The notes below the pieces were generated by a model that ran no database searches, was not told the DNA's origin, and saw only the letters and a program-made list of their open reading frames with translations. The position numbers and the translations under genes are program-made. From Pseudoxanthomonas broegbernensis (GTDB lineage Bacteria > Pseudomonadota > Gammaproteobacteria > Xanthomonadales > Xanthomonadaceae), in the NCBI RefSeq assembly GCF_014202435.1, contig NZ_JACHGU010000003.1:310001-374000 (forward strand): a stretch of DNA of 64,000 bases, given 5' to 3'. Below, piece after piece: positions 39,389 to 55,870 of this stretch; within the stretch, counting starts at the first letter, position 1, and every line of letters starts with the position of its first letter.

Positions 39389-40708
39389 TCAGGCGTCGGC
39401 GGCCGCCTTCGGGTAGGCGAAGATCGCCACCAGCAGGGACACCACGCAGGCCACGGTCATGTACCAGCCGAAGGACACGTCGGTGCCGGTGCGCATGTGC
39501 AGCCAGGTGGCCATCAGCGGCGCGGTGGAGCCGATCAGCGTGGTGCCGACGTTGAAGTTCAGCGCCGCGGCGGTGCCGCGCACCTCCGGCGGGAAGCTCA
39601 GCACGTAGGCGTGGGTCAGCGGCGCGCCGACGAAGTTGTTGATGAAGGTGAAACCCACCACCGCCACCGTCGCCACCGCGACCGAACCGCCGCCCAGCGC
39701 GGCGAAGGTCGGTACCGTGAACAGCACGAAGGCGGCGTAGCCGATCAGCAGCACGCGGCGCCCGCCGTAGCGGTCGGCCAGCAGCCCGCCCCAGATCGCC
39801 GCCGGCGGCCCGATCAGGTAGGTCAGGATCGAGGCCAGCAGCGCGCGGTCGGCGCCGAAGCCGGAGTTGATCAGCGCCACCACGAAGTAGGTCTGGATGC
39901 AGAACGTGCCCACGCGCTGCCCGGCGCCCAGCAGGATCACCTGGCACATCTGCTTCCAGTGCCCGCGCACGGCCTCGGTGAACGGGTGCGGCGGCGGGAT
40001 TTCCTCGGCGGCCTGCTCCAGCGCCTGCTGGATGCGCGGCAGCTCCGGCACGCTGCGGCGGATGTACAGGGTCACCAGGCCCAGCGGCGCGGCCAGCAGG
40101 AACGGGATGCGCCAGCCCCAGTGCGAGAACGCGTCCTCGGGCATGCTCAGAATCAGGACCAGGGCCACGATCGAGGCCAGCAGCGGGCCCAGCGAGGTCG
40201 AGCCCACGCTCCAGCCGGCCAGGTACTGGCGGCGCTTGCGCGGCCCATGCTCGAGGATGAAGTTGGCGGCCACGGTGTATTCGCCGCTGGCGCCCACGCC
40301 CTGGATCAGCCGGCACAGCATCAGCAGGATCGGCGCGGCGATGCCGATGGCCGCGTACCCGGGCAGGATACCGATCAGCACCGTGCCCACGGTCATCAGC
40401 GCGATGGTCAGGATCAGGGTGAAGCGGTGCCCGCGCAGGTCGCTCAGCCGGCCCATCACCACCCCGCCGATCGGCCGGATGGCGTAGGAGGCAATCAGTC
40501 CGATATAGGTGGCGATCAGCGCCACGTAGGGATCGCCTTCGGGGAAGAAGATCCGCGACATGAACACGGCCAGGATGCCGTACAGCGCGTGGTCGTACCA
40601 CTCCACCACGTTGCCCAGCACCGCGGTGAACAGGACGCGGCGCCAGACCGGCGAACCGGCGTCGGGATCGTGCGGCGGCGCATGGGCGGCCGCGGAAGGA
40701 TGCTGCAT
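39389..40708 (-). CDS. MHS-family (MFS) metabolite:H+ symporter
   Basis: 439-residue inner-membrane transporter of the metabolite:proton symporter group (ProP/KgtP/ShiA type): WRRVLFTAVLGNVVEWYDHALYG at helix 1, the loop 2-3 motif GRLSDLRGHRFTL, CRLIQGVGASGEYTVAA, and a repeat motif LLADRYGGRRVLL. Twelve helices are predicted. GGAG lies 8 bases upstream of the ATG. It is the last gene of the minus-strand operon behind two gamma-glutamyltransferase-like genes and a TonB receptor (35-base gap). MHS carriers take up small zwitterions and carboxylates, so it probably imports the product of the periplasmic step. Confidence 0.88.
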   Translation of the reverse strand: MQHPSAAAHAPPHDPDAGSPVWRRVLFTAVLGNVVEWYDHALYGILAVFMSRIFFPEGDPYVALIATYIGLIASYAIRPIGGVVMGRLSDLRGHRFTLILTIALMTVGTVLIGILPGYAAIGIAAPILLMLCRLIQGVGASGEYTVAANFILEHGPRKRRQYLAGWSVGSTSLGPLLASIVALVLILSMPEDAFSHWGWRIPFLLAAPLGLVTLYIRRSVPELPRIQQALEQAAEEIPPPHPFTEAVRGHWKQMCQVILLGAGQRVGTFCIQTYFVVALINSGFGADRALLASILTYLIGPPAAIWGGLLADRYGGRRVLLIGYAAFVLFTVPTFAALGGGSVAVATVAVVGFTFINNFVGAPLTHAYVLSFPPEVRGTAAALNFNVGTTLIGSTAPLMATWLHMRTGTDVSFGWYMTVACVVSLLVAIFAYPKAAADA

Positions 40709-40743
40709 GGGGAAACTCCGGAAAAAAGTGGGGCGGCGACGCG

Positions 40744-42363
40744 TCAGTAGCCTTCGACGCTGCCGCAGCGACGCGGATCGGCGCACGAGGCCAGGCGGCC
40801 GCTGTCCGGATCCAGGGTGATCGCTTCGAAGTTGCCGGTCAGCGTGCAGCGCGGGTGCACCAACTGGTGCCAGAGCCGCCGCTTCCGGGCCCAGGCCAGG
40901 AACGCGTCCTGCATCGCCGGGGCGAAGTCGGATTCGAGCGTATTGCCCCGCTCCCAGCCGTGGGCCGGGTTGTGCGGCCGGGTGCCGAAGCGCGGCTGGT
41001 GCACCGAGGCCTCGATGTCCATGCCGAAGTCCATCAGGTTGACCAGGTTCTGCAGCACGCAGGCCACCAGCGATACCGAAGGCGAGCCGGAGACGATGGC
41101 CGGCCGGCCGTCGCGCAGCACGATGTTCGGCGCCAGGTAGACCGTGGCCTTGGCGCCGGGCTGCGGCAGGATGCGCTGGAAGAACGAGCCGCCGCCGGAG
41201 AGCTGGAATCCTTCGGCGAACAGGCCGTTGGCCCAGCCCGAGGCCATGTGCGAATGGGTGCAGCTGGCGATGTTGCCGTCCTTGTCGACCACCGCCAGGT
41301 GGATGGTGCCGGGCGTGGGCAGCACCGTGCCGGCGGCGCGCGGCTCGCGCACCCGCATCAGCTCGAAGCGCTGCGCCGCGTACTCCTTGGACAGCAGGAT
41401 GCCGGTCTCCACCGGCGCGGTGTCCAGGTCGCCCTGGCGCGGCGGTGCGTAGTAGACCTCGTCGTGTACGCGCATCAGCCACTGCAGCGTCTCGAACGAC
41501 TCCGAGGCCTGGCCCAGCCGGGCCAGGTCGACGTGCTCGAGCAGGTTCAACGCCTCGATCAGCATCATCCCGCCGTCGTCCGGCGCCGGCGAGCCGATCA
41601 GGGTGTAGCGGTCGCGATAGGTGCCCTGCACCGGGCGCTGGAACAGCGGCTGCGCCGACAGGAAGTCCTCCGGCACGATCACCCCGCCGCCGCGCCGGCA
41701 CTCGGCGCTGAAGGCGCGGGCGAAGCCGCCGGTGTAGTAGTCCATGCCCTCGTCGCGCAGGCGCTCCAGGGTGCGCGCCACGCGCGCCTGCACCACGGTC
41801 TCGCCCTGGGTCAGCAGGTGGCCCTGGGGCCAGAACACCTCGCGACCCTGGGGGTGGACGCCGATGCCTTCCTGGCGCCCGTACATCACGCCGTACAAAT
41901 ACGGATCCATCGGGAAGCCCTCGCGCGCCACCTCGATGGCGTCGCGCATCAGCCGCGCGCGGTCGCGCGTGCCCCAGCGCCGGCGCGCGGCCTCGAACGC
42001 CGGCCACCAGCCCGGCACCGGCACGCCTCGGCCGCTGTACAGGTCGGCCCCGCTGAAGCCGGGCAGTTCGGCCAGCGGCGCGCTGACGTTGCCGTTGAGG
42101 TAGGTGGCCTCGCCGCTGGCGGCGTCGCGGTAGAGCAGGCTCAGCCCGCCGGTGATCGAGGTCATGTGCGGCTCGGTCACCAGTTGCATCGTCGCCGCGG
42201 CCAGGATCGCGTCGCAGGCGTTGCCCCCGTCGCGCAGCACGTCCAGCGCCGCGCGGGTGGCCAGCGGGTCGGAGCTGACCACCAGTGCGTTGTCCGCCTC
42301 CACCCGCCGCTTGTGCCCGAAGCGGGCCTGCGCCATCAGCGCCTTGCGTTCGTCGGCATGCAT
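40744..42363 (-). CDS. gamma-glutamyltransferase-family Ntn hydrolase, cytoplasmic-type copy
   Basis: 539-residue Ntn-hydrolase precursor of the gamma-glutamyltranspeptidase family. The expected self-cleavage site and nucleophile is Thr353 in GTIHLAVVDKDGN, giving a large subunit of 352 and a small one of 187 residues. Substrate-loop features such as SGSPSVSLVACVLQNLVNLMDFGMD and HQPRFGTRPHNP are present. No signal peptide is visible, unlike its neighbour, which it matches nearly end to end (long DNA stretches identical), so they arose by tandem duplication. Within an Amadori-type locus it may hydrolyse gamma-glutamyl or gamma-amide bonds; classical glutathione breakdown is the alternative. 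Confidence 0.88.
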   Translation of the reverse strand: MHADERKALMAQARFGHKRRVEADNALVVSSDPLATRAALDVLRDGGNACDAILAAATMQLVTEPHMTSITGGLSLLYRDAASGEATYLNGNVSAPLAELPGFSGADLYSGRGVPVPGWWPAFEAARRRWGTRDRARLMRDAIEVAREGFPMDPYLYGVMYGRQEGIGVHPQGREVFWPQGHLLTQGETVVQARVARTLERLRDEGMDYYTGGFARAFSAECRRGGGVIVPEDFLSAQPLFQRPVQGTYRDRYTLIGSPAPDDGGMMLIEALNLLEHVDLARLGQASESFETLQWLMRVHDEVYYAPPRQGDLDTAPVETGILLSKEYAAQRFELMRVREPRAAGTVLPTPGTIHLAVVDKDGNIASCTHSHMASGWANGLFAEGFQLSGGGSFFQRILPQPGAKATVYLAPNIVLRDGRPAIVSGSPSVSLVACVLQNLVNLMDFGMDIEASVHQPRFGTRPHNPAHGWERGNTLESDFAPAMQDAFLAWARKRRLWHQLVHPRCTLTGNFEAITLDPDSGRLASCADPRRCGSVEGY

Positions 42364-42391
42364 CGTCGTATCCCGTTGTCCTATCTCAGGT

Positions 42392-44122
42392 TCACAGTCC
42401 CATGGCCACGCCGGCCCGGCGCGGGTCGGCGCAGGCCGACAGGCGTCCGCTGTCCGGGTCCTGGACCACGGCCTCGAAACCGCCGGTCAGCGACGCCCAG
42501 GGCTGGACCAGCTTGTGCCACAGGCGGCGCTCGCCGGCCCAGGCCAGGTACTGCCGCTGGATGCCCTCGGAGAAGCCGCATTCGAGGATGTTGCCGCGCT
42601 CCCAGCCGTTCTGCGGATTGTGCGGGCGGGCGCCGAAGCGCGGCTGGTGCACGCTCTGGCGCACGTCCATGCCGAAGTCCATCAGGTTCACCAGGTTCTG
42701 CAGGACGCAGGCCACCAGCGACACCGAGGGCGAGCCGGAGGCGATCACCGGCGCGTCGCCGCGCATGACGATGTTCGGCGCCAGGTAGACCGTGGCCCGG
42801 GCACCGGGCTGCGGCAGGATGCGCTGGAAGAACGAGCCGCCGCCGGAGAGCTGGAAGCCTTCGGCGAACAGGCCGTTCTCCCAGCCGCCGGCCATGTGCG
42901 AATGGGTGCAGCTGGCGACGTTGCGGTCGCGGTCCATCGCCGAGATGTGGATGGTGCCCGGGGTGGGCATGACCCGTCCGGTGGGATGCGGATCGCGCTG
43001 CGACATCAGCTCGAAACGGCGCGCCGCGTATTCCTTGGACAGCAGCAAGGCGACGTCCTCCGGCGCGGTGTCCAGGTCGCCCTGGCGCGGCGGCGCGTAG
43101 TAGACCTCGTTGTGCACGCGGATCAGCCACTGCAGGGTCTCGAACGACTCCGAGGCCGGGCCCAGCCGGGCCAGGTCCACGTGCTCGAGCAGGTTCAGCG
43201 CCTCGACCAGCATCATCCCGCCGTCGTCCGGCGCCGGCGAGCCGATCAGGGTGTAGCGGTCGCGGTAGCTGCCCTGCACCGGGCGCTGGAACATCGGCCG
43301 GTAGGCGCGCAGGTCCTCCGGCACGATCACCCCGCCGCCGCGCCGGCACTCGGCGCTGAAGGCGCGGGCGAAGTCGCCGGTGTAGTAGTCCATGCCCTCG
43401 TCGCGCAGCCGCTCCAGGGTGCGCGCCACGCGGGCCTGCTTCAGCGCCTGCCCCGGCATCACCAGGTAGCCGTCGGGCCAGAACACCTCGCGCCCCTGCG
43501 GATGGATGCCGATGTTGTCGGCGCTCCCGCTGTAGCTGGCGAACAGGCGCGGATCGACCGCGAAGCCCTCGCGCGCGATGTCGATGGCGTCGCGCATCAG
43601 CCGCGCCCGGCCGATGCGGCCCCAGCGCTGGCGCGCGGCCTCGAACGCGGGCCACCAGCCCGGCACCGGCACGCCGCGGCCGCTGTACAGGTCCGCGCCG
43701 CTGAAGCCGGGCAACGGCGCCAGCGGGGCGTTGACGTTGCCGTTGAGATAGGTCGCTTCGCCGCTGGCGGCGTCGCGGTACATCATGCTCAGGCCGCCGG
43801 TGATCGAGGTCATGTGCGGCTCGGTGACCAACTGCACCATGGCCGCGGCCAGCACCGCATCGCAGGCGTTGCCGCCCTCCCGCAGCACCTCGATGCCGGC
43901 GCGCGTGGCCAGCGGGTTTGAGGTGACCACCATGGCGCCGTCGGCGGTGGCCATCTGCTTCGGGCCGGGATGAGCATCCAGGCCGTCCAGGCCGCGGCGG
44001 CGCGGCGCGCGTGCCAGCGCAGGCAGCGCGGCGCCTGCGGCGGCGCCCAGGCCTGCTGCGGCGGCGCCGGCCATGAAGCGGCGGCGGCCCGTGGCGTCGG
44101 GAAGGTCGTTGCGGTCGGTCAC
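42392..44122 (-). CDS. gamma-glutamyltransferase-family Ntn hydrolase, Tat-exported copy
   Basis: 576-residue paralogue of the gene at 40744-42363 with a twin-arginine signal (GRRRFMAGAAAAGLGAAAGAALPALARA, about residues 12-39), so it should be folded in the cytoplasm and exported to the periplasm. Nucleophile Thr390 in PTPGTIHISAMDRDRN; the rest of the core (SGGLSMMYRDAASGE-type segments, SPAPDDGGMMLVEALNLLEHVDLARLG) is shared with the paralogue. First enzyme gene after the TonB receptor, 78 bases away, and 28 bases before the second copy. The role is likely periplasmic trimming of imported gamma-glutamyl or amide substrates. Confidence 0.88.
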   Translation of the reverse strand: MTDRNDLPDATGRRRFMAGAAAAGLGAAAGAALPALARAPRRRGLDGLDAHPGPKQMATADGAMVVTSNPLATRAGIEVLREGGNACDAVLAAAMVQLVTEPHMTSITGGLSMMYRDAASGEATYLNGNVNAPLAPLPGFSGADLYSGRGVPVPGWWPAFEAARQRWGRIGRARLMRDAIDIAREGFAVDPRLFASYSGSADNIGIHPQGREVFWPDGYLVMPGQALKQARVARTLERLRDEGMDYYTGDFARAFSAECRRGGGVIVPEDLRAYRPMFQRPVQGSYRDRYTLIGSPAPDDGGMMLVEALNLLEHVDLARLGPASESFETLQWLIRVHNEVYYAPPRQGDLDTAPEDVALLLSKEYAARRFELMSQRDPHPTGRVMPTPGTIHISAMDRDRNVASCTHSHMAGGWENGLFAEGFQLSGGGSFFQRILPQPGARATVYLAPNIVMRGDAPVIASGSPSVSLVACVLQNLVNLMDFGMDVRQSVHQPRFGARPHNPQNGWERGNILECGFSEGIQRQYLAWAGERRLWHKLVQPWASLTGGFEAVVQDPDSGRLSACADPRRAGVAMGL

Positions 44123-44160
44123 GGACTTCTCCGGAAAATGGGGATACGGACGAACGTTTG

Positions 44161-44190
44161 CGGCCGCCGCCCCTTCCGGAGCGGCGGCCG
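44161..44190. other. intercistronic hairpin between TonB receptor and GGT-like gene
   Basis: Perfect 10-bp stem CGGCCGCCGC/GCGGCGGCCG with a 10-base loop, in the 78-base gap of the minus-strand operon. It lacks a T-run, so transcription probably continues, but it could protect the receptor mRNA or lower downstream expression. Confidence 0.6.
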
Positions 44191-44200
44191 CCGGCGTGCC

Positions 44201-47023
44201 TCACTCGAACGCGAAGCTCATCCGCGCGTAGACGAAGCGCCCGATCACGTCGTAGGTGCTGTAGTCCACCGCGAAGCTGTCCATTTCCTTGTCGAACAGG
44301 TTGTTCACGCCCAGGCTGAAGGTCGCGTTCCAGGGCGCGTAGTGCCAGGCGCCGGACAGGTCCACGTAGTTGTACGCCGGGACCTTGTACTTGCACACCA
44401 CGCCGCCCTGCGGCGTATCCACCACAGAGCGGCTGCCGTCGCAGTGCGCGCCGCTGGCGGTGTCCAGGTTGTCGACGTAGACGTGCGACACGTAGCGGTG
44501 GACCAGCGCCGCGCTGAAGTCGCCCTGCGACCAGTTCAGCGTGGTCCGCGCGCGGTTGCGGGCGAAGTTGCCCAGGCCGCCGGAGTCCGAGCCCTTCCAC
44601 TTGCCGGCGTAGCCAACCCGCGTGCCGGGCTGGTCGGACACGGCGGTGTAGTCGTAGGAGTCCAGGTAGGTGCCGTCGAAGCTGAGCTGGAAGTGGCCGA
44701 AGCGCGTCTGGCCCAGCGTCCAGTGCAGCCCGAGGTCGACGCCGCGGGTCTCGATGGCGCCGACGTTGGCCAGGGTGTTGTCGATGTTGACGATGTTGCC
44801 CTGGGCGCCGCGGGTCACCAGCGAGCAGTACGACGGCAGCCCGGCGCGGTAGCACAGGTCCAGGATGGTCTGCGCGCCCGGGGCCACGATGGCGTCCTCG
44901 ATGCGGTACTGCCAGAAGTCCAGCGAGACCGTCAGCGGGGTGTAGAACGAAGGGTTGTAAACGAAGCCGACATTGGTGGCCCGGCCCGTCTCCGGCTGCA
45001 GGCTCGGGTTGCTGCCGTTGGTGGCCGGCGGCTGTTTCTCGCCGATGAAGCCGGCCGGCACGCCCGAGCACGCCCCCACGCCGGCGGCGGCGCCGGAGCA
45101 CGGGTCGTTGACCGTCGGCGTGTCGCCGGTCTGGCCGCCGTAGAGGTCGTCGATGGTCGGGGCGCGGAAGATGTCGGCGTAGCTGGCCCGCACCAGCAGG
45201 TCGGCGTACGGGCGCCACTCCAGGCCGAGCTTGGAGTTGGTGGTGTCGCCGAAGCTGGAATAATCGGAGTAGCGCACGCCGGCGGTGAGGTTCAGCGCCT
45301 GCGCGAACGGCTTGTCGGCCAGCAGCGGCGCGCTGAACTCGGCGTAGACCTCGTTCACGTCGTAGCTGCCGCGCGAGGGCGCCTCGGGGGTGGCGTCGAC
45401 CATCTTGTTGGCCAGCAGGTAGTCCGGCTGGAAGTCGGACTTCTGGCGCCGATACTCGTAGCCGAACGCCGCGCCGACCGGGCCGGCCGGCAAGTCGAAC
45501 AGGTCGCCGGTGATGTTGGCCAGGAAGTCGGTCTGCTCGCCGTCGTACAGGTTGATCAGGGTCGGCGAGAAGGCCTGCAACTGCTCGCGGGTCAGCGGGC
45601 CGAACACGTTCAGCGGGGTGCAGTTGGCGATCGCCGCGCCCGGAGCGCCGCAGCGCGCGACGCCGTCGGCGTCGAGGAACGACGTGCCGATCGCGTTCTG
45701 CAGCGCCGGCAAGTAGATGCTGCCGGTCTTGGTGATGCGTTGCTGCTGCTTGGCGTAGGTGAAGGCCGTATCCCAGTCGAAGCGGCCCAGCCGGCCGCGC
45801 AGGCCGGTGGTCACCTGGACGTCGTCGCGGTCGTAGGTGCGCACGCGCGGGCCCAGGTCGACCAGGCGGATGCTGAAGTTGCTGATGTCGGTCCCGAACG
45901 GGTTGTAGATGCCCGCGCCCGAGGCGACCACGCCGTAGTTGCCCGCCAGCAGCGGGTCCGAGGCCAGGGTCGAGTCCGAGCGGGTGTGGGTGTAGAAGCC
46001 GTCCGCGAAGAAGGTCACCGAGGGGGAGAGGTCGTAGCTGCCGTTGAGGAACAGGCTGTAGCGGTCCTGCGGCGTGCTCAGCTGGGTCTCCCCGGCGTAC
46101 TCGTAGGTGTCGTTGCCCTCACCCGAGGCGATGTAGCAGCGGAAGTCGGCGGCCGAGGCGCCGGCGGCGCCGTCGCGGCGGGTCAGATAGACCGTGCTGG
46201 CGGTGTTGCCGGCGTTGCCGCAGTCCAGCGACGGGTCCAGCGCCGCGGCGGCGGCGCGCGGCACGGCGAAGCGGCCGTTGGGGATGGTCGAGGAACCCGC
46301 GAAGACCGGCTTGCCGTAGCTGAGCGACTGGCTCACCTCCGACCAGTCGCGGTCGGTGCGCCACATCGCCTTCTGCTTGCCGTAGTTCAGGCCGCCGACG
46401 AAGGTGCCGCGGTCGAAGGTCTTGCCGAAGGTCAGCTGGTAGCTCTGGGTCTGGGCGTCGCCCTTGTCGCTGGCGCCGTAGTAGGCGCTGACCTCCACCC
46501 CGTCCACGTCCTGGCGGGTGATGACGTTGACCACGCCGGCGATGGCGTCGGAGCCGTACACCACCGAGGCGCCGTCCTTCAGCACTTCGATGCGCTGGAT
46601 CATGTTGGCCGGCAGGGCATTGACGTCGCCGGCGTAGTAGCGCACGCCATTGAGCAGGATCAGAGTACGCTCGCTGCCCAGGCCGCGCAGCGAGACGGTC
46701 GAGGCCCCGGTGCCGCCGTAGGAGTTGTCGGCGGTGGTCATGCCGGCGCCGGCGATGTTGGGCAACTGCTGCAGCAGTTCGCCCACGGTCATGTAGCCGG
46801 ACTTCTCGATCGTCTGCCGGTCCATGGTGAAGACCGGGTTGGCGGTTTCCGCGTCCACGCGGCGGATGCGCGAGCCGGTGACGGCCACGGTTTCGAGCTG
46901 GGTGGGCTGTTCCGCGCCCGGGGAGACTTCCTGTTGCTGGGCCTGCGCCGCGGCCGGCATGCCGCTGATGGCCAGCATGCACGCGGCGGCCAGCAGACCG
47001 AGCCTGGGGGTCGTTGCACTCAT
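44201..47023 (-). CDS. TonB-dependent outer-membrane receptor
   Basis: 940-residue outer-membrane active transporter: signal peptide (LLAAACMLAISGMPAAAQA), a TonB-box/plug start LETVAVTGSRIRRVDAE, the plug (about 60-180, with VYGSDAIAGVVNVITR) and a long 22-strand barrel with several Cys-containing extracellular loops (for example DPSLDCGNAG, NDPCSGAAAGVGACSG). This is the Xanthomonas/Caulobacter type used for nutrients other than iron. The ATG at 47023 has AGAGGAAA 9 bases upstream. It leads the minus-strand operon with the two GGT-like enzymes and the MHS carrier, and its promoter holds a GntR operator, so it should import the inducer or a precursor. Confidence 0.9.
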   Translation of the reverse strand: MSATTPRLGLLAAACMLAISGMPAAAQAQQQEVSPGAEQPTQLETVAVTGSRIRRVDAETANPVFTMDRQTIEKSGYMTVGELLQQLPNIAGAGMTTADNSYGGTGASTVSLRGLGSERTLILLNGVRYYAGDVNALPANMIQRIEVLKDGASVVYGSDAIAGVVNVITRQDVDGVEVSAYYGASDKGDAQTQSYQLTFGKTFDRGTFVGGLNYGKQKAMWRTDRDWSEVSQSLSYGKPVFAGSSTIPNGRFAVPRAAAAALDPSLDCGNAGNTASTVYLTRRDGAAGASAADFRCYIASGEGNDTYEYAGETQLSTPQDRYSLFLNGSYDLSPSVTFFADGFYTHTRSDSTLASDPLLAGNYGVVASGAGIYNPFGTDISNFSIRLVDLGPRVRTYDRDDVQVTTGLRGRLGRFDWDTAFTYAKQQQRITKTGSIYLPALQNAIGTSFLDADGVARCGAPGAAIANCTPLNVFGPLTREQLQAFSPTLINLYDGEQTDFLANITGDLFDLPAGPVGAAFGYEYRRQKSDFQPDYLLANKMVDATPEAPSRGSYDVNEVYAEFSAPLLADKPFAQALNLTAGVRYSDYSSFGDTTNSKLGLEWRPYADLLVRASYADIFRAPTIDDLYGGQTGDTPTVNDPCSGAAAGVGACSGVPAGFIGEKQPPATNGSNPSLQPETGRATNVGFVYNPSFYTPLTVSLDFWQYRIEDAIVAPGAQTILDLCYRAGLPSYCSLVTRGAQGNIVNIDNTLANVGAIETRGVDLGLHWTLGQTRFGHFQLSFDGTYLDSYDYTAVSDQPGTRVGYAGKWKGSDSGGLGNFARNRARTTLNWSQGDFSAALVHRYVSHVYVDNLDTASGAHCDGSRSVVDTPQGGVVCKYKVPAYNYVDLSGAWHYAPWNATFSLGVNNLFDKEMDSFAVDYSTYDVIGRFVYARMSFAFE

Positions 47024-47195
47024 GGGTACGCTTTCCTCTCCTCGCATAGACGTCAACGCCAGTCCGTCGGGGAGACGGCTGGCACGGCGCCGGTTTCTGT
47101 TGGGAATCCGTTCGTCGCGGCGCCGGTGGATTCCGGCGACGCGTATACCAATTGACGATTCTGGTAGACCGGCTCGACCCAGAAGCGTGCAACAA

Positions 47196-47224
47196 GAGTT
47201 ACACTGGTCTAGACCAATATGCAA
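47196..47224 (-). promoter_or_regulatory. promoter of TonB receptor operon with embedded GntR operator
   Basis: Minus strand -35 TTGCAT (47219-47224) and -10 TAACTC (47196-47201) are 17 bases apart. The spacer (47202-47218) is filled by the palindrome ACTGGTCTAGACCAAT, whose core TGGTCTAGACCA (47205-47216) is perfectly symmetrical. A repressor bound there must exclude RNA polymerase. A weaker related dyad CTGGTAGACCGG is at 47161-47172. The 5' leader would be about 165 bases. Confidence 0.6.
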
Positions 47225-47318
47225 GCGGCATAGCACCAATTCTTAACACTGGTGGACCCAGTGCGATCGAGGGAGGCAGGGAGGGAGGCGCCGCGGCGAC
47301 CCGCGCGGCGCGAGGACC

Positions 47319-48095: not shown

Positions 48096-48171
48096 GGCCT
48101 GTCGAGGATCAAAGGTGGCTAACCATCGCAGATTCCGGAACGGCAAAGCCAGCCCCGGCTCGAATTGCCTG

Positions 48172-48200
48172 TTGTACTTGGTCGATGCAATTGGTAGGCT
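48172..48200 (+). promoter_or_regulatory. candidate promoter of deglycase operon
   Basis: TTGTAC (48172-48177), 17-base spacer, TAGGCT (48195-48200). The predicted start lies just before the palindromic operator at 48212-48225. The spacer also contains a half-site (CAATTGG). Weak -10 box, so tentative. Confidence 0.35.
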
Positions 48201-48211
48201 CCACTTCGTTA

Positions 48212-48225
48212 TTGGTATATACCAA
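48212..48225. promoter_or_regulatory. GntR operator upstream of deglycase gene
   Basis: Perfect 14-bp palindrome TTGGTATATACCAA in the divergent region between the GntR gene and the SIS-domain gene, 16 bases before the latter's ATG. It shares TTGGT-N4-ACCAA with the site in the receptor promoter. This symmetry is typical of GntR/UTRA operators (for example the NagR/DasR TGGTCTAGACCA type). Confidence 0.75.
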
Positions 48226-48241
48226 CGGAGAGCAGTACATC

Positions 48242-49255
48242 ATGGCATCGGAAGTGAATCGCAGCGCCATCCTGTCCGGACTGGCCCATACCGTATCGAC
48301 CTTGCCGGAGGCGATGGCGCTCGGCCGCAGCCTGGCGAACGAGGTGGACCGCGTCTACTTCGTCGCCCACGGCTCGGCCAACCGCGCCATGCAGGGCATG
48401 CAGTACTGGATCGAGCATTTCAGCCCCAGCCTGGAAGTGCGCCGCTACTTCCCCTCCGAGCTGATGGCCCAGGATCCGCCGCGTCTGGACGAGCGCACCC
48501 TGGTGTTCCTGGCGTCCAAGTCCGGCACCACGCCCGAGACCGTGGCCGCGGCCGAATACCTGCGCGGCAAGCCCTGCCGCACCGTCGGCTTCACCCTCAA
48601 GGGCGACAGCCCGCTGGCGGGACTGGCGCAGCGCGGCTTCCTGGCCGGCGACACGGGCGAGTCGTTCGTGGCGCTGTTCATGCTGATGCAGTCGGTGATC
48701 GGCGGCATCCTGGCCGAGCGCGACGGCTGGCCGCACGCCGACGAGCTGCTGTCGTCGCTGGCCGCCCTGCCCGGCGCGATCGCCGACACCGCCGCCGCCA
48801 ACGACGCGCGCGCGCTGGAGGACGCCAAGACCTACCAGCACGACCGCAACCTCTACCACGTCGCTTCCGGCCCGGGCTTCACGCCGGCGTACGTGTTCGG
48901 CGTGTGCATCCTGATGGAGATGCTGTGGCTGCACAGCTACCCGATCGAGGCGGCCGAGTTCTTCCACGGCCCGTTCGAGATCGTCGACGAGACCACGCCG
49001 CTGATCCTGATCCTGGGCGAGGACCCCAGCCGCCCGCTGATGGAGCGCGTGCTGCGCTTCTGCGACAAGAACGCCAAGCGGGTGATGGTCTACGATTCGC
49101 GCGACTACGAGATGAAGGGCATCGCCCCGGCCATCCGCCCGATCGTCGCGCCGTACGTGCTGCAGGCCGCGCTCAAGCGCCTGTCCGAGCACCTGTCCGA
49201 CCTGCACGGCCAGCCGCTCAGCACGCGCCGGTACATGTGGAAGACCGAATACTGA
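48242..49255 (+). CDS. SIS-domain Amadori-phosphate deglycase, FraB/FrlB-like
   Basis: 337-residue tandem-SIS protein of the fructosamine-6-phosphate deglycase family, which splits 6-phospho-Amadori compounds into glucose-6-phosphate and an amino acid. It shows SKSGTTPETVAAAEYLRG, YHVASGPGF and the diagnostic MEMLWLHSYPIEAAEFFHGPFEI. The catalytic Glu/His pair of FraB (Glu214/His230, 16 residues apart) maps to Glu226 and His242 with identical spacing. The C-terminus RRYMWKTEY is also FraB-like. There is no glutaminase domain, so it is not GlmS. I start at 48242; an earlier ATG (48185) would place the operator inside the gene. First gene of the plus-strand operon. Confidence 0.82.
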   Translation: MASEVNRSAILSGLAHTVSTLPEAMALGRSLANEVDRVYFVAHGSANRAMQGMQYWIEHFSPSLEVRRYFPSELMAQDPPRLDERTLVFLASKSGTTPETVAAAEYLRGKPCRTVGFTLKGDSPLAGLAQRGFLAGDTGESFVALFMLMQSVIGGILAERDGWPHADELLSSLAALPGAIADTAAANDARALEDAKTYQHDRNLYHVASGPGFTPAYVFGVCILMEMLWLHSYPIEAAEFFHGPFEIVDETTPLILILGEDPSRPLMERVLRFCDKNAKRVMVYDSRDYEMKGIAPAIRPIVAPYVLQAALKRLSEHLSDLHGQPLSTRRYMWKTEY

Positions 49256-49271
49256 GCCAGGCGTGACGACC

Positions 49272-50126
49272 ATGGGCAACCCGCACCGCATCCTCGGCAT
49301 CGGCGACAACACCGTCGACACCTACGTGTCGTCCCGGACCCAGTACCCGGGCGGGAACACGGTCAACGTGGCCGCCCTGGCCCGCCGGCTCGGCGCCCGC
49401 AGCGCCTACCTGGGCTGTGTCGGCGACGATGCCGGCGGGCGCCTGGTCCGCGACGCCCTCATGGCCGAGGGCGTGGACGTAACACGCCTGCGGGTGCGCC
49501 CCGGCGAGAACGCGCGGGCCTTCGTCGTCCACGACCAGGGCGACCGCCGGTTCCTCGGTTCCCACCCCGGGGTACGCGCGCAGTACCGGCTGACCGACGC
49601 CGACTTCGACTACGTGGCCGGCTTCGACCTGGCCCACAGCAGCGTGTACAGCGGGCTGGAGGCGGAACTGCCGCGCCTGGCGGCCGCCGCGCAGCGGCTG
49701 TCGTTCGACTATTCCAACCGCTGGGACGAGGCGATGCTGCGCGACACCGCGGGCCTGTTCGACGCGGTGTTCCTCTCCGCCGCCCACCTGCACGAGGCCG
49801 CTTGCCGGGTGCTGCTGGAACGCTGCATCGGCCATGGCGCGCGCTGCGCGGTCGCCACCCGCGGCGCGGCCGGTGCGCTGGCCATCGATGCCGCCGGCCA
49901 GCTCCATGCCCAGGGCGTGTTTCCCGCCGAGGCGGTCGATACGCTCGGCGCCGGCGACGGCTTCATCACCGCCTTCCTGCTGGCCCGCCTCGACGGCCGG
50001 CCGCTGCCGGACTGCCTGGAGGCCGGGGCGCGCTTCGGCGCCCGGGTCTGCGGCTGGCACGGCGGTTTCGGCCACGGCCGGCCCTGGGAGGGCGAAGGCG
50101 CCCACCACCTGGAGCGCGCGCCATGA
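49272..50126 (+). CDS. PfkB-family sugar kinase, FrlD/FraD-like
   Basis: 284-residue ribokinase-fold kinase. The N-terminus ILGIGDNTVDTYVSSRTQYPGGNTVNVA (read in parts: GIGDNTVDTY, YPGGNTVNVAALARRLGA) is nearly that of fructoselysine kinase FrlD, and FDYSNRWDEAML resembles FrlD's FDFSDKWD. The ATP/catalytic motif VDTLGAGDGF has the base Asp229. It should phosphorylate the 6-hydroxyl of an Amadori compound, the step before the adjacent deglycase. ATG 49272 has AGG 10 bases upstream; GTG 49263 is a possible alternative. It lies 16 bases behind the deglycase gene. Confidence 0.83.
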   Translation: MGNPHRILGIGDNTVDTYVSSRTQYPGGNTVNVAALARRLGARSAYLGCVGDDAGGRLVRDALMAEGVDVTRLRVRPGENARAFVVHDQGDRRFLGSHPGVRAQYRLTDADFDYVAGFDLAHSSVYSGLEAELPRLAAAAQRLSFDYSNRWDEAMLRDTAGLFDAVFLSAAHLHEAACRVLLERCIGHGARCAVATRGAAGALAIDAAGQLHAQGVFPAEAVDTLGAGDGFITAFLLARLDGRPLPDCLEAGARFGARVCGWHGGFGHGRPWEGEGAHHLERAP

Positions 50127-50205
50127 CCGCCTCCCCTCCCTTCCCTTCGCACATCGCGGCGCGCGGCGCGCGGCGCTCCCTTCCCCTCTTGCTCAAGGTC
50201 ATCGC

Positions 50206-52260
50206 ATGAATTGGCGAATTGGCGTGGATTCCGGCGGCACGTTCACCGACGTGTGCCTGTTCGAAGAAAGCACCGGGCGCACCGAGATCTGGAAGGTCTC
50301 CTCCACCCCGGACGATCCCTCGCGCGGCATCGCCCAGGGCGTGGCCGAAGCCCTGGAGCGGGTGGGCGCCACGCCCGACGCGGTGAGCTATTTCGGCCAC
50401 GGCACCACCGTGGGCACCAACGCACTGATCCAACTGCGCGGCGTGCCCACCGGCCTGATCACCACCGACGGCTTCCGCGACCTGCTGGAGATCGGCCGCC
50501 AGAAGCGCCCCGACCTGTACGACCTGCAGGCCGACAAGCCGCCGGTGCTGGTCGCCCGCGACCTGCGCCTGGAAGTGCCCGAGCGCGTGCGCCACGATGG
50601 CAGCGTCGAGACCGCCCTGGACGAACGGGCCGTGCGCGAGGCCGCGCGCGCGCTGCGCGAGGCCGGGGTGCGCTCGGTGGCGATCAGCTTCCTGTACGGC
50701 TTCGTCCGCCCCGAGCACGAGGAGACCGCGCGCCGCATCGTGGCCGAGGAATTCCCGGAGGCCTTCGTCTCCACCTCCTCCGAGGTCGCGCCCGAATTCC
50801 GCGAGTACGAGCGCATGTCCACCACGGTGGTCAACGCCTACCTGGGCCCGGTGATGGAGCGCTACATCCGCCGCCTGGGCGACCGCCTGGCCGAGCTGGG
50901 CCTGAAGGCCGCGCCGCACCTGACCCAGTCCAACGGCGGGGTGATCGGCTTCGAGCAGGCCTCGCGCCTGCCGGTGCGCACCGTCCTGTCCGGGCCCAGC
51001 ACCGGCGTGGTCGCCGCGCAGGCCATCGGCGAACAAACCGGGTTCGGCAACCTCATCACCTTCGACGTCGGCGGCACCAGCAGCGACGTGGCCTTGATGC
51101 AGGACGGCCGCTGCGCCCTGGCCAGCGAGGCGGTGGTGCACGGCTACCCGATCAAGGCGCCGATGCTGGACATCCACACCGTCGGCGCCGGCGGCGGCTC
51201 CATCGCCTACGTCGACAACGGCGGCCTGCTCAAGGTCGGCCCGCGCAGCGCCGGCGCCGATCCCGGACCGGTGTGCTACGGCCGCGGCAACGACGAGCCC
51301 ACCGTCACCGACGCCAACGTGGTGCTGCAGACCCTCAACCCCACCCACCTGCTGGCCGGGCGCATGCCCATCGACCGGCAACTGGCGGTGGATGCGGTCG
51401 CCCGCCTGGCCGACCGCCTCGGCCTGGGCACGATGGAGACGGCCCAAGGCATCCTGTCGGTGGTGATCGCCAACATGGCCCGCGCCATCCGCGTGATCAG
51501 CGTGCAGCGCGGCCACGACCCGCGCGACTACAGCCTGGTCGCCTTCGGCGGCGCCGGCCCGCTGCACGCCGCGCGCCTGGCCAAGGAATTGGAGATGTCG
51601 CGGGTGATCGTGCCCCTGACCCCGGGCATTCTCTGCGCCACCGGCTTGCTGCTGACCGACCTGCGCGCCGACTTCGCCGGCAGCCTGTTGCGGGTGCTCG
51701 ATGCCGGCGCCGCCGCACCGCTGGAACAGGCCTTCGCCGCGCTGAACGCGCAGGCCCAGGCCTGGTTCGAGGAGGAGAGCATCGCCGCGGCCGACCGCGG
51801 CCTGGCGCGCTCGGTGGACGTGCGCTACCTGGGCCAGAACTACGAGATCGCCGTGCCCGTGCCCGAAGGCTCCATCGGCCCGGCCGCGCTGGAGGCCATC
51901 GCCGCCCGCTTCGCTGCCGAGCACGAGCGCCTGTACGGCTTCTCGGCCAAGGACGATCCCATCCAACTGGTGACCTGCCGCGCCGGCGCCACCGGCGCCG
52001 TGCGCAAGGCCGCCTTCCAGCCGCAGCCCGACGCCGGCCCCGACCCGTCGGCCGCGCGCGTCGGCCAGCGCCAAGTCTGGATGCCCGAATACGGCGATTT
52101 CGTCGACTGCCCGGTCTACGACCGCGCGCGGCTGGCCGCGGGCAACCGCATCGCCGGCCCGGCCATCGTCGAGCAGATGGACACCACCACCATCGTGCTG
52201 CCCGGCATGACCGCCACGGTCGAGCCCTACCTCAACCTGATCCTGGAGTTCGGCGCATGA
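50206..52260 (+). CDS. hyuA: HyuA: hydantoinase/5-oxoprolinase family, ATP-binding subunit
   Basis: 684-residue subunit of an ATP-dependent cyclic-amide hydrolase (N-methylhydantoinase A/5-oxoprolinase group). ASKHA-type signatures: IGVDSGGTFTDVCLF at the N-terminus, HGTTVGTNALI, DVGGTSSDVALM and GAGGGSIAYVD. AAGGTC lies 6 bases before the ATG. It is 79 bases after the kinase gene, and its stop overlaps the hyuB start (ATGA). In this context I infer that the complex opens a lactam such as a glycated pyroglutamate or frees glutamate from 5-oxoproline; a hydantoin substrate is the alternative. Confidence 0.88.
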   Translation: MNWRIGVDSGGTFTDVCLFEESTGRTEIWKVSSTPDDPSRGIAQGVAEALERVGATPDAVSYFGHGTTVGTNALIQLRGVPTGLITTDGFRDLLEIGRQKRPDLYDLQADKPPVLVARDLRLEVPERVRHDGSVETALDERAVREAARALREAGVRSVAISFLYGFVRPEHEETARRIVAEEFPEAFVSTSSEVAPEFREYERMSTTVVNAYLGPVMERYIRRLGDRLAELGLKAAPHLTQSNGGVIGFEQASRLPVRTVLSGPSTGVVAAQAIGEQTGFGNLITFDVGGTSSDVALMQDGRCALASEAVVHGYPIKAPMLDIHTVGAGGGSIAYVDNGGLLKVGPRSAGADPGPVCYGRGNDEPTVTDANVVLQTLNPTHLLAGRMPIDRQLAVDAVARLADRLGLGTMETAQGILSVVIANMARAIRVISVQRGHDPRDYSLVAFGGAGPLHAARLAKELEMSRVIVPLTPGILCATGLLLTDLRADFAGSLLRVLDAGAAAPLEQAFAALNAQAQAWFEEESIAAADRGLARSVDVRYLGQNYEIAVPVPEGSIGPAALEAIAARFAAEHERLYGFSAKDDPIQLVTCRAGATGAVRKAAFQPQPDAGPDPSAARVGQRQVWMPEYGDFVDCPVYDRARLAAGNRIAGPAIVEQMDTTTIVLPGMTATVEPYLNLILEFGA

Positions 52261-53912
52261 GCACGTCCACCGCCACCACGCGGGTCCCGGTCGACCCGAT
52301 CACGGTCGAGGTCATCGGCAGCGCCCTGTCCTCCATCGTCGAGGAGATGGGCGAAGCGCTGGTGCGCGCCAGCCACTCGGCCAACATCAAGGAGCGGCGC
52401 GACTGCTCCACCGCGCTGTTCGACACCGCCGGCCAGGCGCTGTGCCAGGCCGAGCACATCCCCATGCACCTGGGCAGCTTCCTGGGCATCATCCCGCACA
52501 TCCTCAAGCGCTACGCGCCGGAGGAGATCCGCGCCGGCGACGTGTTCATCGGCAACGACGCCTACGAGGGCGGCGCCACCCACCTGCCGGACATCGTGAT
52601 CGCCGAACCGGTGTTCTTCGAGGGCGCGCTGGTGGCCTGGGCGGTCAACACCGCGCACCACGCCGATTTCGAGGACCGCGGCCACGCCCACATCTACCAG
52701 GAAGGCCTGCGCATCCCGCCGATCCGGCTGTACCGCGCCGGCGTGCTGCAGGAGGACCTGCAGGCCCTGTTCCTGCTCAACTGCCAGGTGCCGCGCGAGC
52801 GCATCTCCGACCTGCGCGCGCAGATGGCCGCCAACCGCCTGGCCACCGAGCGCCTGGGCAAGCTGTGCGCCAAGTACGGTCGCGACGTGGTGCTGTCGGC
52901 AGGCCAGGAACTGATGGACTACGCCGAGCGCAAGATGCGCGCCGGCATCGCCGCCATCCCAGACGGCACCTATAGTTTCAGCGACCGCTTCGACAACCCG
53001 GCCTTCGACGGCGAGATGACCTTCGAATGCAGCGTCACCGTGGCTGGCGACGAGATGAACCTGCATTTCGACGGCCCCGACCAGGTGCGCGCCGGACTGA
53101 ACATGGTCTACACCGCCCTGCTGTCGACCGTGTACTACGCGGTCAAGACCGTGGTCGATCCCACCATCCTGCCCAACGGCGGCCTGGCGCGGCCGCTGCA
53201 CGTGACCGCGCGCGAAGGCAGCCTGCTCAACTGCCGGCACCCGGCGGCGGTCAACGGCCGCATCGCCCCCTGCCAGCGCATCGTCGACCTGGTCCACGGC
53301 GCGCTGGCGCAGGTGGTGCCCGAGCGGGTGACCGCGGCCGGCAACGGCGCGGTGGCCTCGGCCACCTTCGTCGGCACCCGCCCGGACGGCGAACTGTGGG
53401 TGTACCTGGAGACCATCGGCGGCGGCGCCGGCGCGCGCGCCACCAAGGACGGCCTGGACGGCGTGCACGTGCACATGACCAACACCTCCAACCTGCCGGC
53501 CGAGGCGCTGGAGCAGGAATACCCGCTCACCCTGCTGCGCTACGAGATGGTGGACGGCTCCGGCGGCGCCGGGCGCTGCCGCGGCGGCATGGGCCTGCGC
53601 CGGGTCTACCGCGCCGAGCGCACCTGCCGGGTCAAGGTGGACGGCTCGCGCATGCGCAGCCAGCCCTGGGGCCTGGCCGGCGGCCTGCCCGGCGCCAGCG
53701 GCGGCTACGCCTTCAGCGAAGGCGTGCAGGTGGAGAACGGCATCGCCGAACTGCAGCCGGGCGACCAGGTGACGGTGATCACCCCTGGCGCCGGCGGCTA
53801 CGGCCCGCCTTCCGAGCGCAGCCGCGAGGCGGTGATCCGCGACCTGGCCGAGCGCCGGATCGACCGGGACACCGCGGGCCGCATCTACGCCGCGCAGTTG
53901 TCGCAAGCCTAG
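52257..53912 (+). CDS. hyuB: HyuB: hydantoinase/5-oxoprolinase family, catalytic partner subunit
   Basis: 551-residue partner of HyuA. The family core is complete: DPITVEVIGSALSSIVEEMGEALVRASHS, GNDAYEGGATHLPDIVI, NTAHHADFED with metal-ligand-like His and Asp residues, and the C-terminal GGAGRCRGGMGLRR and PGAGGYGPPSER. HyuA phosphorylates the cyclic amide and HyuB hydrolyses it. Translationally coupled to hyuA by a 4-base overlap. Last gene of the plus-strand Amadori-type operon, followed by a hairpin terminator. Confidence 0.88.
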   Translation: MSTSTATTRVPVDPITVEVIGSALSSIVEEMGEALVRASHSANIKERRDCSTALFDTAGQALCQAEHIPMHLGSFLGIIPHILKRYAPEEIRAGDVFIGNDAYEGGATHLPDIVIAEPVFFEGALVAWAVNTAHHADFEDRGHAHIYQEGLRIPPIRLYRAGVLQEDLQALFLLNCQVPRERISDLRAQMAANRLATERLGKLCAKYGRDVVLSAGQELMDYAERKMRAGIAAIPDGTYSFSDRFDNPAFDGEMTFECSVTVAGDEMNLHFDGPDQVRAGLNMVYTALLSTVYYAVKTVVDPTILPNGGLARPLHVTAREGSLLNCRHPAAVNGRIAPCQRIVDLVHGALAQVVPERVTAAGNGAVASATFVGTRPDGELWVYLETIGGGAGARATKDGLDGVHVHMTNTSNLPAEALEQEYPLTLLRYEMVDGSGGAGRCRGGMGLRRVYRAERTCRVKVDGSRMRSQPWGLAGGLPGASGGYAFSEGVQVENGIAELQPGDQVTVITPGAGGYGPPSERSREAVIRDLAERRIDRDTAGRIYAAQLSQA

Positions 53913-53923
53913 CGTTCCCGGCA

Positions 53924-53974
53924 CGGTGCCGCGGGGGTCCCCTCCCCCATCCTCCGCGGCACCGCTGCCTTTTC
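53924..53974 (+). terminator. likely terminator of deglycase-hyuAB operon
   Basis: 11-bp stem CGGTGCCGCGG/CCGCGGCACCG (53924-53934 with 53954-53964) with a 19-base loop, followed by CTGCCTTTTCC. It starts 12 bases after the hyuB stop. The large loop makes it weaker than the other terminators here. Confidence 0.6.
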
Positions 53975-54060
53975 CTGCGCTTCCGCGTCCGCATGCGGGC
54001 GGTCATCGGCGCTCGATAGCCGGCCGGCCTTCGATTCGCCGCCGACCTCGAGCGAACGCT

Positions 54061-55716: not shown

Positions 55717-55813
55717 GCGGTTTTCCCTGAGGCGCAAAGCCCCGATTCTAGGCGCAACCGTGGATTCGCAGGCGCCGGGCCCGCATGCGGAACGTTCCTG
55801 GGCCCGGAGGCGG

Positions 55814-55840: not shown

Positions 55841-55870
55841 GGGGCGTGCGAGGGCGCCGCCATACCGCGC

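What the first reader, a model, noticed from the sequence alone, without database searches (positions are those of the whole stretch)
39389..53912. Putative Amadori-compound (glycated glutamine/gamma-glutamyl) utilisation locus with a new gene combination
Seen: a GntR/UTRA regulator sits between two operons. One has a FraB/FrlB-like deglycase (Glu226/His242 conserved), a FrlD/FraD-like kinase, then hyuA and hyuB. The other has a TonB receptor, a Tat-exported and a cytoplasmic gamma-glutamyltransferase-like enzyme, and an MHS symporter. Known: Salmonella fraRBDAE imports fructose-asparagine, removes its amide in the periplasm (FraE asparaginase), phosphorylates it (FraD) and deglycates it (FraB). 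Inferred: here TonB uptake replaces porins, the GGT-like enzymes take the place of the asparaginase, MHS replaces FraA, and HyuAB opens or processes the lactam that glycated glutamine readily forms (fructosyl-pyroglutamate). I know of no described system with this full set.
Basis: partly seen in the sequence, partly recalled or inferred. Interest (0 to 1): 0.88.

Follow-up and report, generated by a model that had tools for sequence, protein, structure and literature searches.

The report
Glycated-glutamine lactam catabolism gene cluster
A 14.6-kb gene block, apparently acquired by a bacterium, looks built to import sugar-bound glutamine, open the ring it readily forms and release glucose-6-phosphate and glutamate, using relatives of the genes with which crown-gall bacteria eat opines.

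Summary
In detail: nine intact genes, correctly placed, form one 14.6-kb unit also carried by Luteimonas wenzhouensis (90% DNA identity); the deglycase is missing from the 16 other same-genus genomes searched. The Amadori reading holds, for better reasons than those given. (1) SIS, kinase and GntR resemble MocD, MocE and MrtR of pAoF64/95; a mocD mutant cannot degrade deoxyfructosyl-glutamine (DFG), and DFG is the proposed inducer of MrtR. (2) TTGGTATATACCAA stands before the deglycase here and at both moc promoters there; a second palindrome precedes the TonB-receptor operon, so both operons probably form one regulon. (3) HyuAB is 67-69% identical to HyuAB of Ti/opine plasmids, pointing to a hexosyl-pyroglutamate lactam. 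A HyuAB pair accompanies this deglycase in 19 of 19 close loci and a distant version in Priestia; 8 of 8 other deglycase-like loci lack it. Weak: the two 'GGTs' as stand-ins for FraE; they keep the nucleophilic Thr but most gamma-glutamyl-pocket residues differ. Verdict: new variant of a known kind, a probable fructosyl-pyroglutamate/glycated-glutamine pathway joining moc-type deglycation with an aga-type lactamase. Substrate and all activities are inferred.

The parts
39385..53964 (.). The whole unit: block collinear with Luteimonas wenzhouensis scaffold L010
   Evidence: blastn, 14,636-column alignment at 90.0%
39389..40708 (-). MHS-type metabolite/H+ symporter (MFS); proposed inner-membrane uptake
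   Evidence: Pfam MFS_1; NCBIfam TIGR00883 307 bits, cut-off 443
40744..42363 (-). GGT-superfamily Ntn hydrolase 2, no export signal seen by eye; 76% identical to its neighbour
   Evidence: PF01019 233 bits; pocket residues altered
42392..44122 (-). GGT-superfamily Ntn hydrolase 1 with Tat-like N-terminus (by eye)
   Evidence: PF01019 238 bits; Thr nucleophile kept, positions of E. coli Arg114, Asp433, Ser462-463 altered
44201..47023 (-). TonB-dependent outer-membrane receptor
   Evidence: Pfam plug and barrel; 94% and 55% identical in L010 and L011
47205..47216 (.). Operator-like perfect palindrome TGGTCTAGACCA, 182 bases upstream of the receptor start
47319..48095 (-). GntR/UTRA regulator, related to MrtR of pAoF64/95 (38%)
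48212..48225 (.). Operator TTGGTATATACCAA, identical to that at both moc promoters of pAoF64/95
   Evidence: the 14-bp repeat there is described in PMC6341043 (discussion, part 1 of 2 read)
48242..49255 (+). SIS-domain fructosamine-6-phosphate deglycase, FrlB/FraB/MocD type; Glu226, His242
49263..50126 (+). PfkB kinase, FrlD/MocE type
   Evidence: NCBIfam FrlD 200 bits; 40% identical to the kinase at the MocE position of pAoF64/95
50206..52260 (+). HyuA, ATP-dependent lactamase large subunit
   Evidence: Pfam; 67-68% to opine-plasmid HyuA; tree
52257..53912 (+). HyuB, ATP-dependent lactamase small subunit
   Evidence: Pfam 560 bits; 68-69% to opine-plasmid HyuB

Best explanation
It is an acquired catabolic regulon for Amadori compounds of glutamine, above all their lactam form N-(1-deoxyfructosyl)-pyroglutamate. 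The TonB receptor takes the compound through the outer membrane and the MHS symporter through the inner one. In the cytoplasm the FrlD/MocE-type kinase phosphorylates the sugar at C6, the ATP-dependent HyuAB opens the lactam to the fructosyl-glutamate form, and the SIS deglycase splits fructosyl-glutamate-6-phosphate into glucose-6-phosphate and glutamate. Lactam opening must precede deglycation, because the deglycase reaction needs an amine, not an amide, nitrogen (chemical inference); the order of kinase and HyuAB is open. A MrtR-like GntR/UTRA repressor silences both operons through TTGGTATATACCAA-like operators until a deoxyfructosyl-glutamine-like compound binds it. The two GGT-superfamily hydrolases, one periplasmic and one cytoplasmic, probably remove an amide substituent from an alpha-N-blocked acyl group in part of the substrate range. 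Shown here: genes, families, conserved residues, conserved neighbourhood, operator sequences, presence in this genome against absence in relatives. Inferred: substrate, transport route, order of steps, regulation itself, the GGT role.
For: SIS: best solved relative is a putative fructose-amino-acid-6-phosphate deglycase (3eua, 212 bits); it sits inside the deglycase group, apart from six other SIS rows; Glu/His pair in 9 of 9 rows. Kinase: FrlD top model. Regulator: nearest described relative MrtR, 38%, 157 bits, against 82 bits for E. coli FrlR; operator identical to both moc promoters of pAoF64/95. [quoted passage not shown] Operator before SIS in 17 of 19 loci. Lactamase: HyuA/HyuB 67-69% identical to those of the octopine Ti plasmid and pAoF64/95, which lie beside a FAD oxidoreductase and an ABC operon; [quoted passage not shown] Deglycase-linked HyuAs form a clade (97/94) in the same 23-row group as the opine-plasmid ones. 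A HyuAB pair occurs in 19 of 19 close-relative loci, 17 of them directly behind the kinase, and in Priestia with only 37% SIS and 45% HyuA identity. No oxidase or SDR lies in the window's unit, so a substrate already at the Amadori level fits better than a mannityl opine. Fructosyl-pyroglutamate occurs in nature, e.g. honey (PMC12114437, passages).
Against: No activity, growth or expression data. SIS is only 29-36% identical to the Ti and pAoF64/95 proteins and 29% to E. coli FrlB, and falls below the FrlB model's cut-off. The exact lactam is not shown: the ATP-dependent lactamase family takes oxoproline, hydantoins and caprolactam (PMC8453981, passages), and the best NCBIfam model for HyuA is caprolactamase, below cut-off. 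HyuAB genes also occur in the nopaline catabolism region of nopaline Ti plasmids (PMC6733357, passage), so nearness to opine genes does not fix the substrate. This genome has no PxpA-family gene (PF03746), so HyuAB could serve plain 5-oxoproline. That the Ti-plasmid HyuAB hydrolyses agropinic acid is recalled (Lyi, Jafri and Winans 1999), not read. Deinococcus loci (3 of 3) have GntR-SIS-PfkB without HyuAB, so the deglycase can do without it. The 19 loci come from a search that finds only close relatives, 11 of them Bosea by title and a twelfth (L018) branching among them; two of the 19 (L012, L015) have a diverged HyuAB on the other side. In L011 the SIS promoter's best operator match is only 9 of 14. 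The GGT role is a guess.
Confidence: 0.67

Rival explanations
1. The substrate is a mannityl or similar opine (agropinic or mannopinic acid) rather than an Amadori compound: HyuAB opens the mannityl-pyroglutamate lactam, and the deglycase works on the ketose formed after oxidation.
For: HyuAB closest to opine-plasmid HyuAB among described ones. In a Bosea and in Limobrevibacterium the same module carries a FAD oxidase 56-61% identical to that of the Ti plasmid (L013, L021).
Against: No oxidase or SDR lies among the window genes scanned, so the mannityl group could not be oxidised by the cluster itself.
Confidence: 0.12
2. HyuAB acts after or beside deglycation on another cyclic amide, such as free 5-oxoproline or a hydantoin formed from the released amino acid.
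For: The family is broad (PMC8453981, passages). This genome has no PxpA-family gene, so HyuAB could be its 5-oxoprolinase; one other, weak HyuA-type match exists (89.5 bits, not studied).
Against: Orthologues on opine plasmids sit with opine genes; in 17 of 19 loci hyuAB directly follows the kinase gene.
Confidence: 0.15
3. The target is glycated gamma-glutamyl peptides, with the TonB receptor and the two GGT-like enzymes as the key parts and HyuAB clearing the pyroglutamate formed.
For: GGT-like genes lie in one gene row with the receptor, behind its operator; loss of the Asp433 position fits a donor without the usual free alpha-amino group, as in class IV cephalosporin acylases where it is Asn.
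Against: The Arg that meets the alpha-carboxylate and the two Ser are altered too; only 2 of 19 loci have these enzymes in the flanks held.
Confidence: 0.14
4. Chance neighbours: a fructosamine operon and an unrelated receptor/hydrolase/symporter operon on either side of a regulator.
For: GGT-like pair, TonB receptor and MHS of the window's kind were not found in the Bosea loci.
Against: Both promoters carry the only two perfect palindromes of this pattern in the 3.47-Mb genome; the receptor-GGT-MHS set recurs next to the module in Sphingomonas sp. BK235, L011; L. wenzhouensis keeps the whole block.
Confidence: 0.04

Closest known systems
Agrobacterium moc system (MocD, MocE, MrtR on pAoF64/95)
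   Same: SIS protein, PfkB kinase, GntR/UTRA repressor and an identical 14-bp operator; DFG is the inducer in pAoF64/95 (PMC6341043, passages)
   Different: oxidoreductases and ABC importer of the moc region are absent here; proteins only 36-40% identical; HyuAB lies about 18 kb away there, not in the moc operon
Agropinic-acid (aga) region of octopine Ti plasmid and pAoF64/95 (gene roles recalled)
   Same: HyuA/HyuB 67-69% identical
   Different: Ti and pAoF64/95 have a FAD oxidoreductase and an ABC importer beside HyuAB; here a deglycase and kinase, TonB receptor and MHS
Salmonella fraRBDAE (fructose-asparagine; PMC4072780, passages)
   Same: GntR regulator, deglycase, kinase; Amadori compound of an amide amino acid
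   Different: no FraE asparaginase, no Dcu-type FraA; HyuAB and TonB receptor instead
Bacillus subtilis frlBONMD / E. coli frlABCD
   Same: deglycase and kinase families; B. subtilis enzymes prefer alpha-glycated amino acids (PMC12632257, passage)
   Different: other importers, no lactamase (E. coli locus seen; B. subtilis operon from the paper)
Caprolactamase CapAB / ATP-dependent lactamase family
   Same: family of HyuAB
   Different: below the CapA/CapB cut-offs (624 and 269 bits against 1000)
Gamma-glutamyltransferase / class IV cephalosporin acylase
   Same: family and Thr nucleophile
   Different: most gamma-glutamyl recognition residues altered

Membership tests
Amadori 6-phosphate deglycase (FrlB/FraB/MocD) | Catalytic Glu and His | tested here: met
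Glu226/His242 aligned in 9 of 9 rows.
Amadori 6-phosphate deglycase (FrlB/FraB/MocD) | Groups with deglycases, not GlmS/NagB | tested here: met
   Tree of 45 rows, 39-row deglycase side 99/96; Ti mas2' falls inside the window's clade on a very long branch, unreliable
Amadori 6-phosphate deglycase (FrlB/FraB/MocD) | Glucose-6-phosphate release | not testable with these tools
   none
E. coli FrlB equivalog NF008481 | Score above 430 bits | tested here: not met
   111.5 bits
Salmonella Fra system | FraE asparaginase and Dcu-type FraA | tested here: not met
   No such family in the ten proteins scanned, 39389-55863
moc/MrtR regulon | GntR/UTRA repressor with TTGGTATATACCAA operator | tested here: met
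   Sequence only; binding not tested
moc system | MocC oxidoreductase and mot ABC importer | tested here: not met
   None in the ten proteins scanned
Opine-plasmid (aga-type) HyuAB | Groups with the HyuA of opine plasmids | tested here: met
   One 23-row clade (100/99) with Ti, pAoF64/95, Martelella and Paracoccus HyuA; the order of its three branches is not resolved
aga locus | FAD oxidoreductase beside HyuAB | tested here: not met
   None in the ten proteins scanned
Gamma-glutamyltransferase | Thr nucleophile | tested here: met
   both copies
Gamma-glutamyltransferase | Arg114, Asp433, Ser462-Ser463, Gly483-Gly484 (E. coli numbering) | tested here: not met
   Asn, gap, Val-Tyr, Ser-Val in both copies; the three other GGTs of this genome keep Arg, Ser-Ser and Gly-Gly. 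Caution: a high-scoring GGT of a Bosea locus (L017) also lacks the Arg and has Asn for Asp433, and extremophile GGTs vary here too (PMC8062742, passages)
Gamma-glutamyltransferase TIGR00066 | Score above 357.85 bits | tested here: not met
   208 and 214 bits
ATP-dependent lactamase (oxoprolinase/hydantoinase) | Hydantoinase A and B domains | tested here: met
   PF05378, PF01968, PF19278 and PF02538 over cut-off

The most novel reading that the evidence does not exclude
An undescribed catabolic module, spread over Alpha- and Gammaproteobacteria and assembled separately in Bacillota, uses an ATP-dependent lactamase to feed an Amadori deglycase, so that the cyclic end form of glycated glutamine becomes food. 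Mannityl-opine catabolism on Ti plasmids and this module share one gene stock, so opine eating may have been built from ordinary scavenging of glycated plant amino acids (or the reverse). In Luteimonas and sphingomonads the module gained a TonB receptor, an outer-membrane receptor for an Amadori compound; I know of none described, and the six papers listed (titles and abstract starts only) showed none.
Probability: 0.53. Interest if true: 0.72.

Novelty: new variant of a known kind. Interest (0 to 1): 0.6.

Why it matters
Glycated glutamine cyclises readily (recalled chemistry), and the lactam should block ordinary deglycases. A dedicated ring-opening step would fill that gap and give these HyuAB proteins a testable substrate. 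It ties opine catabolism of crown-gall bacteria to a wider bacterial trait, and supplies a regulator and operator that mark the regulon in other genomes. If the receptor imports an Amadori compound, that would be a new kind of TonB substrate as far as I know.

Tried and rejected
Rejected or weakened: the GGT-like pair as ordinary gamma-glutamyltransferases; Salmonella fra as nearest model (moc/aga fits better); a genus-wide ancestral trait (SIS absent in the 16 other same-genus genomes searched, 3 of them under 90% complete; both flanking genes found in all 17; L. wenzhouensis, which has the block, came from another collection). Co-occurrence in the general background was uninformative for HyuA, because loci returned with family searches are only about 3.9 kb; for deglycases I fetched longer stretches. 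One of these (L142) has the contig length and gene row of L017 and was not counted, leaving 8 other deglycase-like loci from 7 genomes, none with a HyuA or HyuB match at E 1e-8 in the 12-20 kb held. They are the best-scoring loci, mostly from one family (f61), and some lie near contig ends. In a first script the wrong frame was taken for the three other GGTs of this genome; corrected. SIS tree: L006 gave no match and was left out; the mas2' placement is a long-branch artefact. Literature: ten full-text searches listed no paper that, by title and abstract start, joins HyuAB with an Amadori deglycase; the only listed paper holding both 'oxoprolinase' and 'deglycase' was an eye-disease review (PMC12189886, listing only). 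One search showed 20 of 68 papers and 20 of 46, so this is not proof of absence. Papers on DFG genes, pAoF64/95 (2014), agropinic-acid import and Amadori binding proteins were not held; Lyi et al. 1999 was not looked up by id and did not appear.
Full report
1. The observation. The nine genes are there, intact and in the reported order. The unit is real: the stretch 39385-53964 matches a Luteimonas wenzhouensis scaffold (L010) as one 14.6-kb block at 90% DNA identity; outside it only short pieces match at 80-82% (54061-54482 on the right, 38978-39142 on the left). The 16 other genomes of the genus searched lack the deglycase (3 of the 16 are under 90% complete). Both flanking genes occur in all 17 genomes including this one. 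In 12 of the 16 relatives the two lie on one contig, 2.5-10.9 kb apart in 11 and 35.7 kb in one, against 15.7 kb here. What fills those gaps was looked at in four relatives only, and no cluster gene was recognised there (L144-L147). So the block is most simply an acquisition at a variable site. In the wider order 1 of 298 other genomes has any match at E 1e-20, at 28% identity.

2. Deglycase and kinase. The SIS protein's best solved relative is named a putative fructose-amino-acid-6-phosphate deglycase (3eua, 212 bits; a B. subtilis protein as I recall), far above glutamine-fructose-6-phosphate transaminase (39 bits). In a 45-row tree it lies with FrlB, the MocD-type and PTS-linked SIS proteins and apart from six other SIS rows (99/96), in a distinct subfamily that includes Deinococcus. 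One row, the T-DNA protein mas2', falls into that subfamily on a branch of 3 changes per site and should be disregarded. The Glu/His pair is present in all nine proteins aligned. The kinase scores best against FrlD (200 bits; next 89). Both lie below the curated cut-offs of those models.

3. Neighbourhood. A scan of the genome collection (84,980 species) gave 19 loci, 64-92% identical. The search finds close relatives only; 11 of the 19 are Bosea by title and L018 branches among them. SIS and kinase are adjacent in 19 of 19; GntR was recognised in 18 of 19 (not L021); a HyuA-HyuB pair of the window's type follows directly in 17, and in two (L012, L015) a diverged pair (43-44% HyuA identity) stands on the other side, with an operator before hyuA in L012 and one between hyuB and gntR in L015. 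A plasmid of Priestia filamentosa (Bacillota) has MFS-MFS-SIS-HyuA-HyuB-PfkB-GntR with 37% SIS and 45% HyuA identity, without the operator. A Terrarubrum plasmid has GntR-SIS-PfkB with HyuAB about 10 kb on, the genes between on the same strand. Against: three of three Deinococcus plasmids have GntR-SIS-PfkB and no HyuAB, with the operator TGGTCTATACCA. As a comparison, 8 more distant deglycase-like loci from 7 genomes have no HyuA or HyuB in the 12-20 kb held, and none is listed in the E. coli frl, Enterococcus and Klebsiella stretches.

4. Uptake parts vary. L013 (Bosea) and L021 have a family-5 binding protein and an FAD oxidase, L021 and L026 permease genes of the Dpp type (Pfam-tested only in L013, L021, L026). 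The oxidase of L013 and L021 is 56-61% identical to that of the Ti plasmid. TonB receptor plus MHS go with the module in Luteimonas and in L011, L012 and L016 (L015 has MHS, its receptor was not tested). The GGT-like genes were found only in Luteimonas (two) and L011 (one).

5. Regulation. TGGTNTANACCA occurs twice in the window, 47205 and 48213, upstream of the receptor operon and of the deglycase operon; 0 in 100 shuffles. The whole 3.47-Mb genome holds two more, neither palindromic. The exact pattern stands before SIS in 17 of 19 loci; a further site stands before the receptor in L010 and L012, before the binding protein in L013, L021 and L026, and at the same place in the other Bosea loci. 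In L016 the best matches are 12 of 14 (SIS side) and 13 of 14 (receptor side); in L011 11 of 14 on the receptor side but only 9 of 14 at SIS; no chance control was made for these. The 14-mer TTGGTATATACCAA at 48212 is identical to that at both moc promoters of pAoF64/95. PMC6341043 (passages, and part 1 of 2 of the discussion; [quoted passage not shown] Relief of MrtR by DFG is their model, and they leave open whether MrtR controls the whole mot-mocDE operon. The gene order there (motABCDmocDE) makes MocD the SIS protein and MocE the kinase of L031 (my reading). The window's regulator is closest to MrtR among described proteins compared (38%, 157 bits; FrlR 82 bits; undescribed background regulators up to 85 bits).

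6. The lactamase. HyuA and HyuB are 67-69% identical to the pair on the octopine Ti plasmid and on pAoF64/95. There they stand beside a FAD oxidoreductase and an ABC operon. [quoted passage not shown] that it belongs to this ABC operon is my inference. That HyuAB there opens agropinic acid (mannityl-pyroglutamate) is my recollection of Lyi et al. 1999. PMC6733357 and PMC8554961 (passages) propose ring opening of lactam opines for other HyuAB pairs of Ti plasmids; the former adds that nopaline plasmids have such genes too, which makes the link to sugar lactams less exclusive. In a 40-row tree the 19 deglycase-linked HyuAs are one clade (97/94) inside a 23-row group (100/99) with the opine-plasmid, Martelella and Paracoccus ones, whose order is unresolved; Priestia and L012/L015 lie outside, on long branches whose joining is uncertain. 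This points to at least two, perhaps three, separate recruitments of HyuAB to deglycase clusters. Against a dedicated role: this genome has no PxpA-family gene, so HyuAB could also be its 5-oxoprolinase.

7. GGT-like pair. The copies are 76% identical. They keep the nucleophilic Thr, but Arg114 is Asn, Asp433 is in a gap, Ser462-Ser463 is Val-Tyr and Gly483-Gly484 is Ser-Val; Asn411 is kept. The three other GGTs of this genome keep Arg114, Ser-Ser and Gly-Gly. PMC8062742 (passages) gives Arg114 the alpha-carboxylate and reports no activity in R114L of E. coli, and cephalosporin-acylase activity in D433N. It also reports that R109S of the B. licheniformis enzyme keeps 85% activity and that extremophile GGTs have other residues at these places; and a high-scoring GGT of Bosea locus L017 has Leu and Asn there. 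So an altered acyl specificity is likely, not proven. One copy is probably exported by Tat, one cytoplasmic (by eye). The nearest plasmid relatives are about 30-33% identical (25 of 721 records listed); of 398 phylum genomes only this one matches at E 1e-60, though L011 has a 66% relative.

8. Reading. Import, kinase, ring opening and deglycation to glucose-6-phosphate plus glutamate explain the core well. The absence of an oxidase speaks for an Amadori rather than a mannityl substrate. Fructosyl-pyroglutamate is a natural compound (honey, PMC12114437, passages) and DFG occurs in decaying plant matter (PMC4231840, passages). All steps are inferred; the substrate could still be an opine, a glycated peptide or, for HyuAB, plain 5-oxoproline.

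9. Novelty. The parts are known kinds. The joined module, its breadth and the TonB/MHS version were not seen in ten full-text searches (listed in Tried and rejected), which cover open-licence papers only and of which two lists were cut. I rate it a new variant of a known kind, interest 0.6.

Noticed in passing
L045 6016-12974 (Priestia filamentosa plasmid pBEH4): SIS-HyuA-HyuB-PfkB-GntR with two MFS genes in a Gram-positive: a distant version of the same module.
   Followed up: partly
L033, L034, L043 (Deinococcus plasmids): GntR-SIS-PfkB-binding protein on three Deinococcus plasmids, no HyuAB, each with the operator TGGTCTATACCA just before the SIS gene.
   Followed up: partly
L040 7597-12669 and L041 2007-12656: Martelella and Paracoccus plasmids carry the opine-type HyuAB and FAD oxidase with a transporter but no annotated deglycase: possible agropinic-acid-type catabolism outside agrobacteria.
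   Followed up: no
window 40744-44122: Tandem pair of GGT-like hydrolases, 76% identical, one with a Tat-like leader and one without, both with an altered gamma-glutamyl pocket.
   Followed up: partly
window 54061-55863: Flanking serine-hydrolase/DUF3471 gene found in all 17 genus genomes; on the L. wenzhouensis scaffold only about its last 420 bases match beside the block, suggesting rearrangement there.
   Followed up: partly
whole genome G000: No PxpA-family 5-oxoprolinase subunit was found (PF03746), although 5 of 14 control genomes have it.
   Followed up: no
L048 3535-10720 (Klebsiella plasmid): LacI-SIS-PfkB-amino-acid ABC importer-TIM-barrel cluster, likely another Amadori utilisation set.
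   Followed up: no
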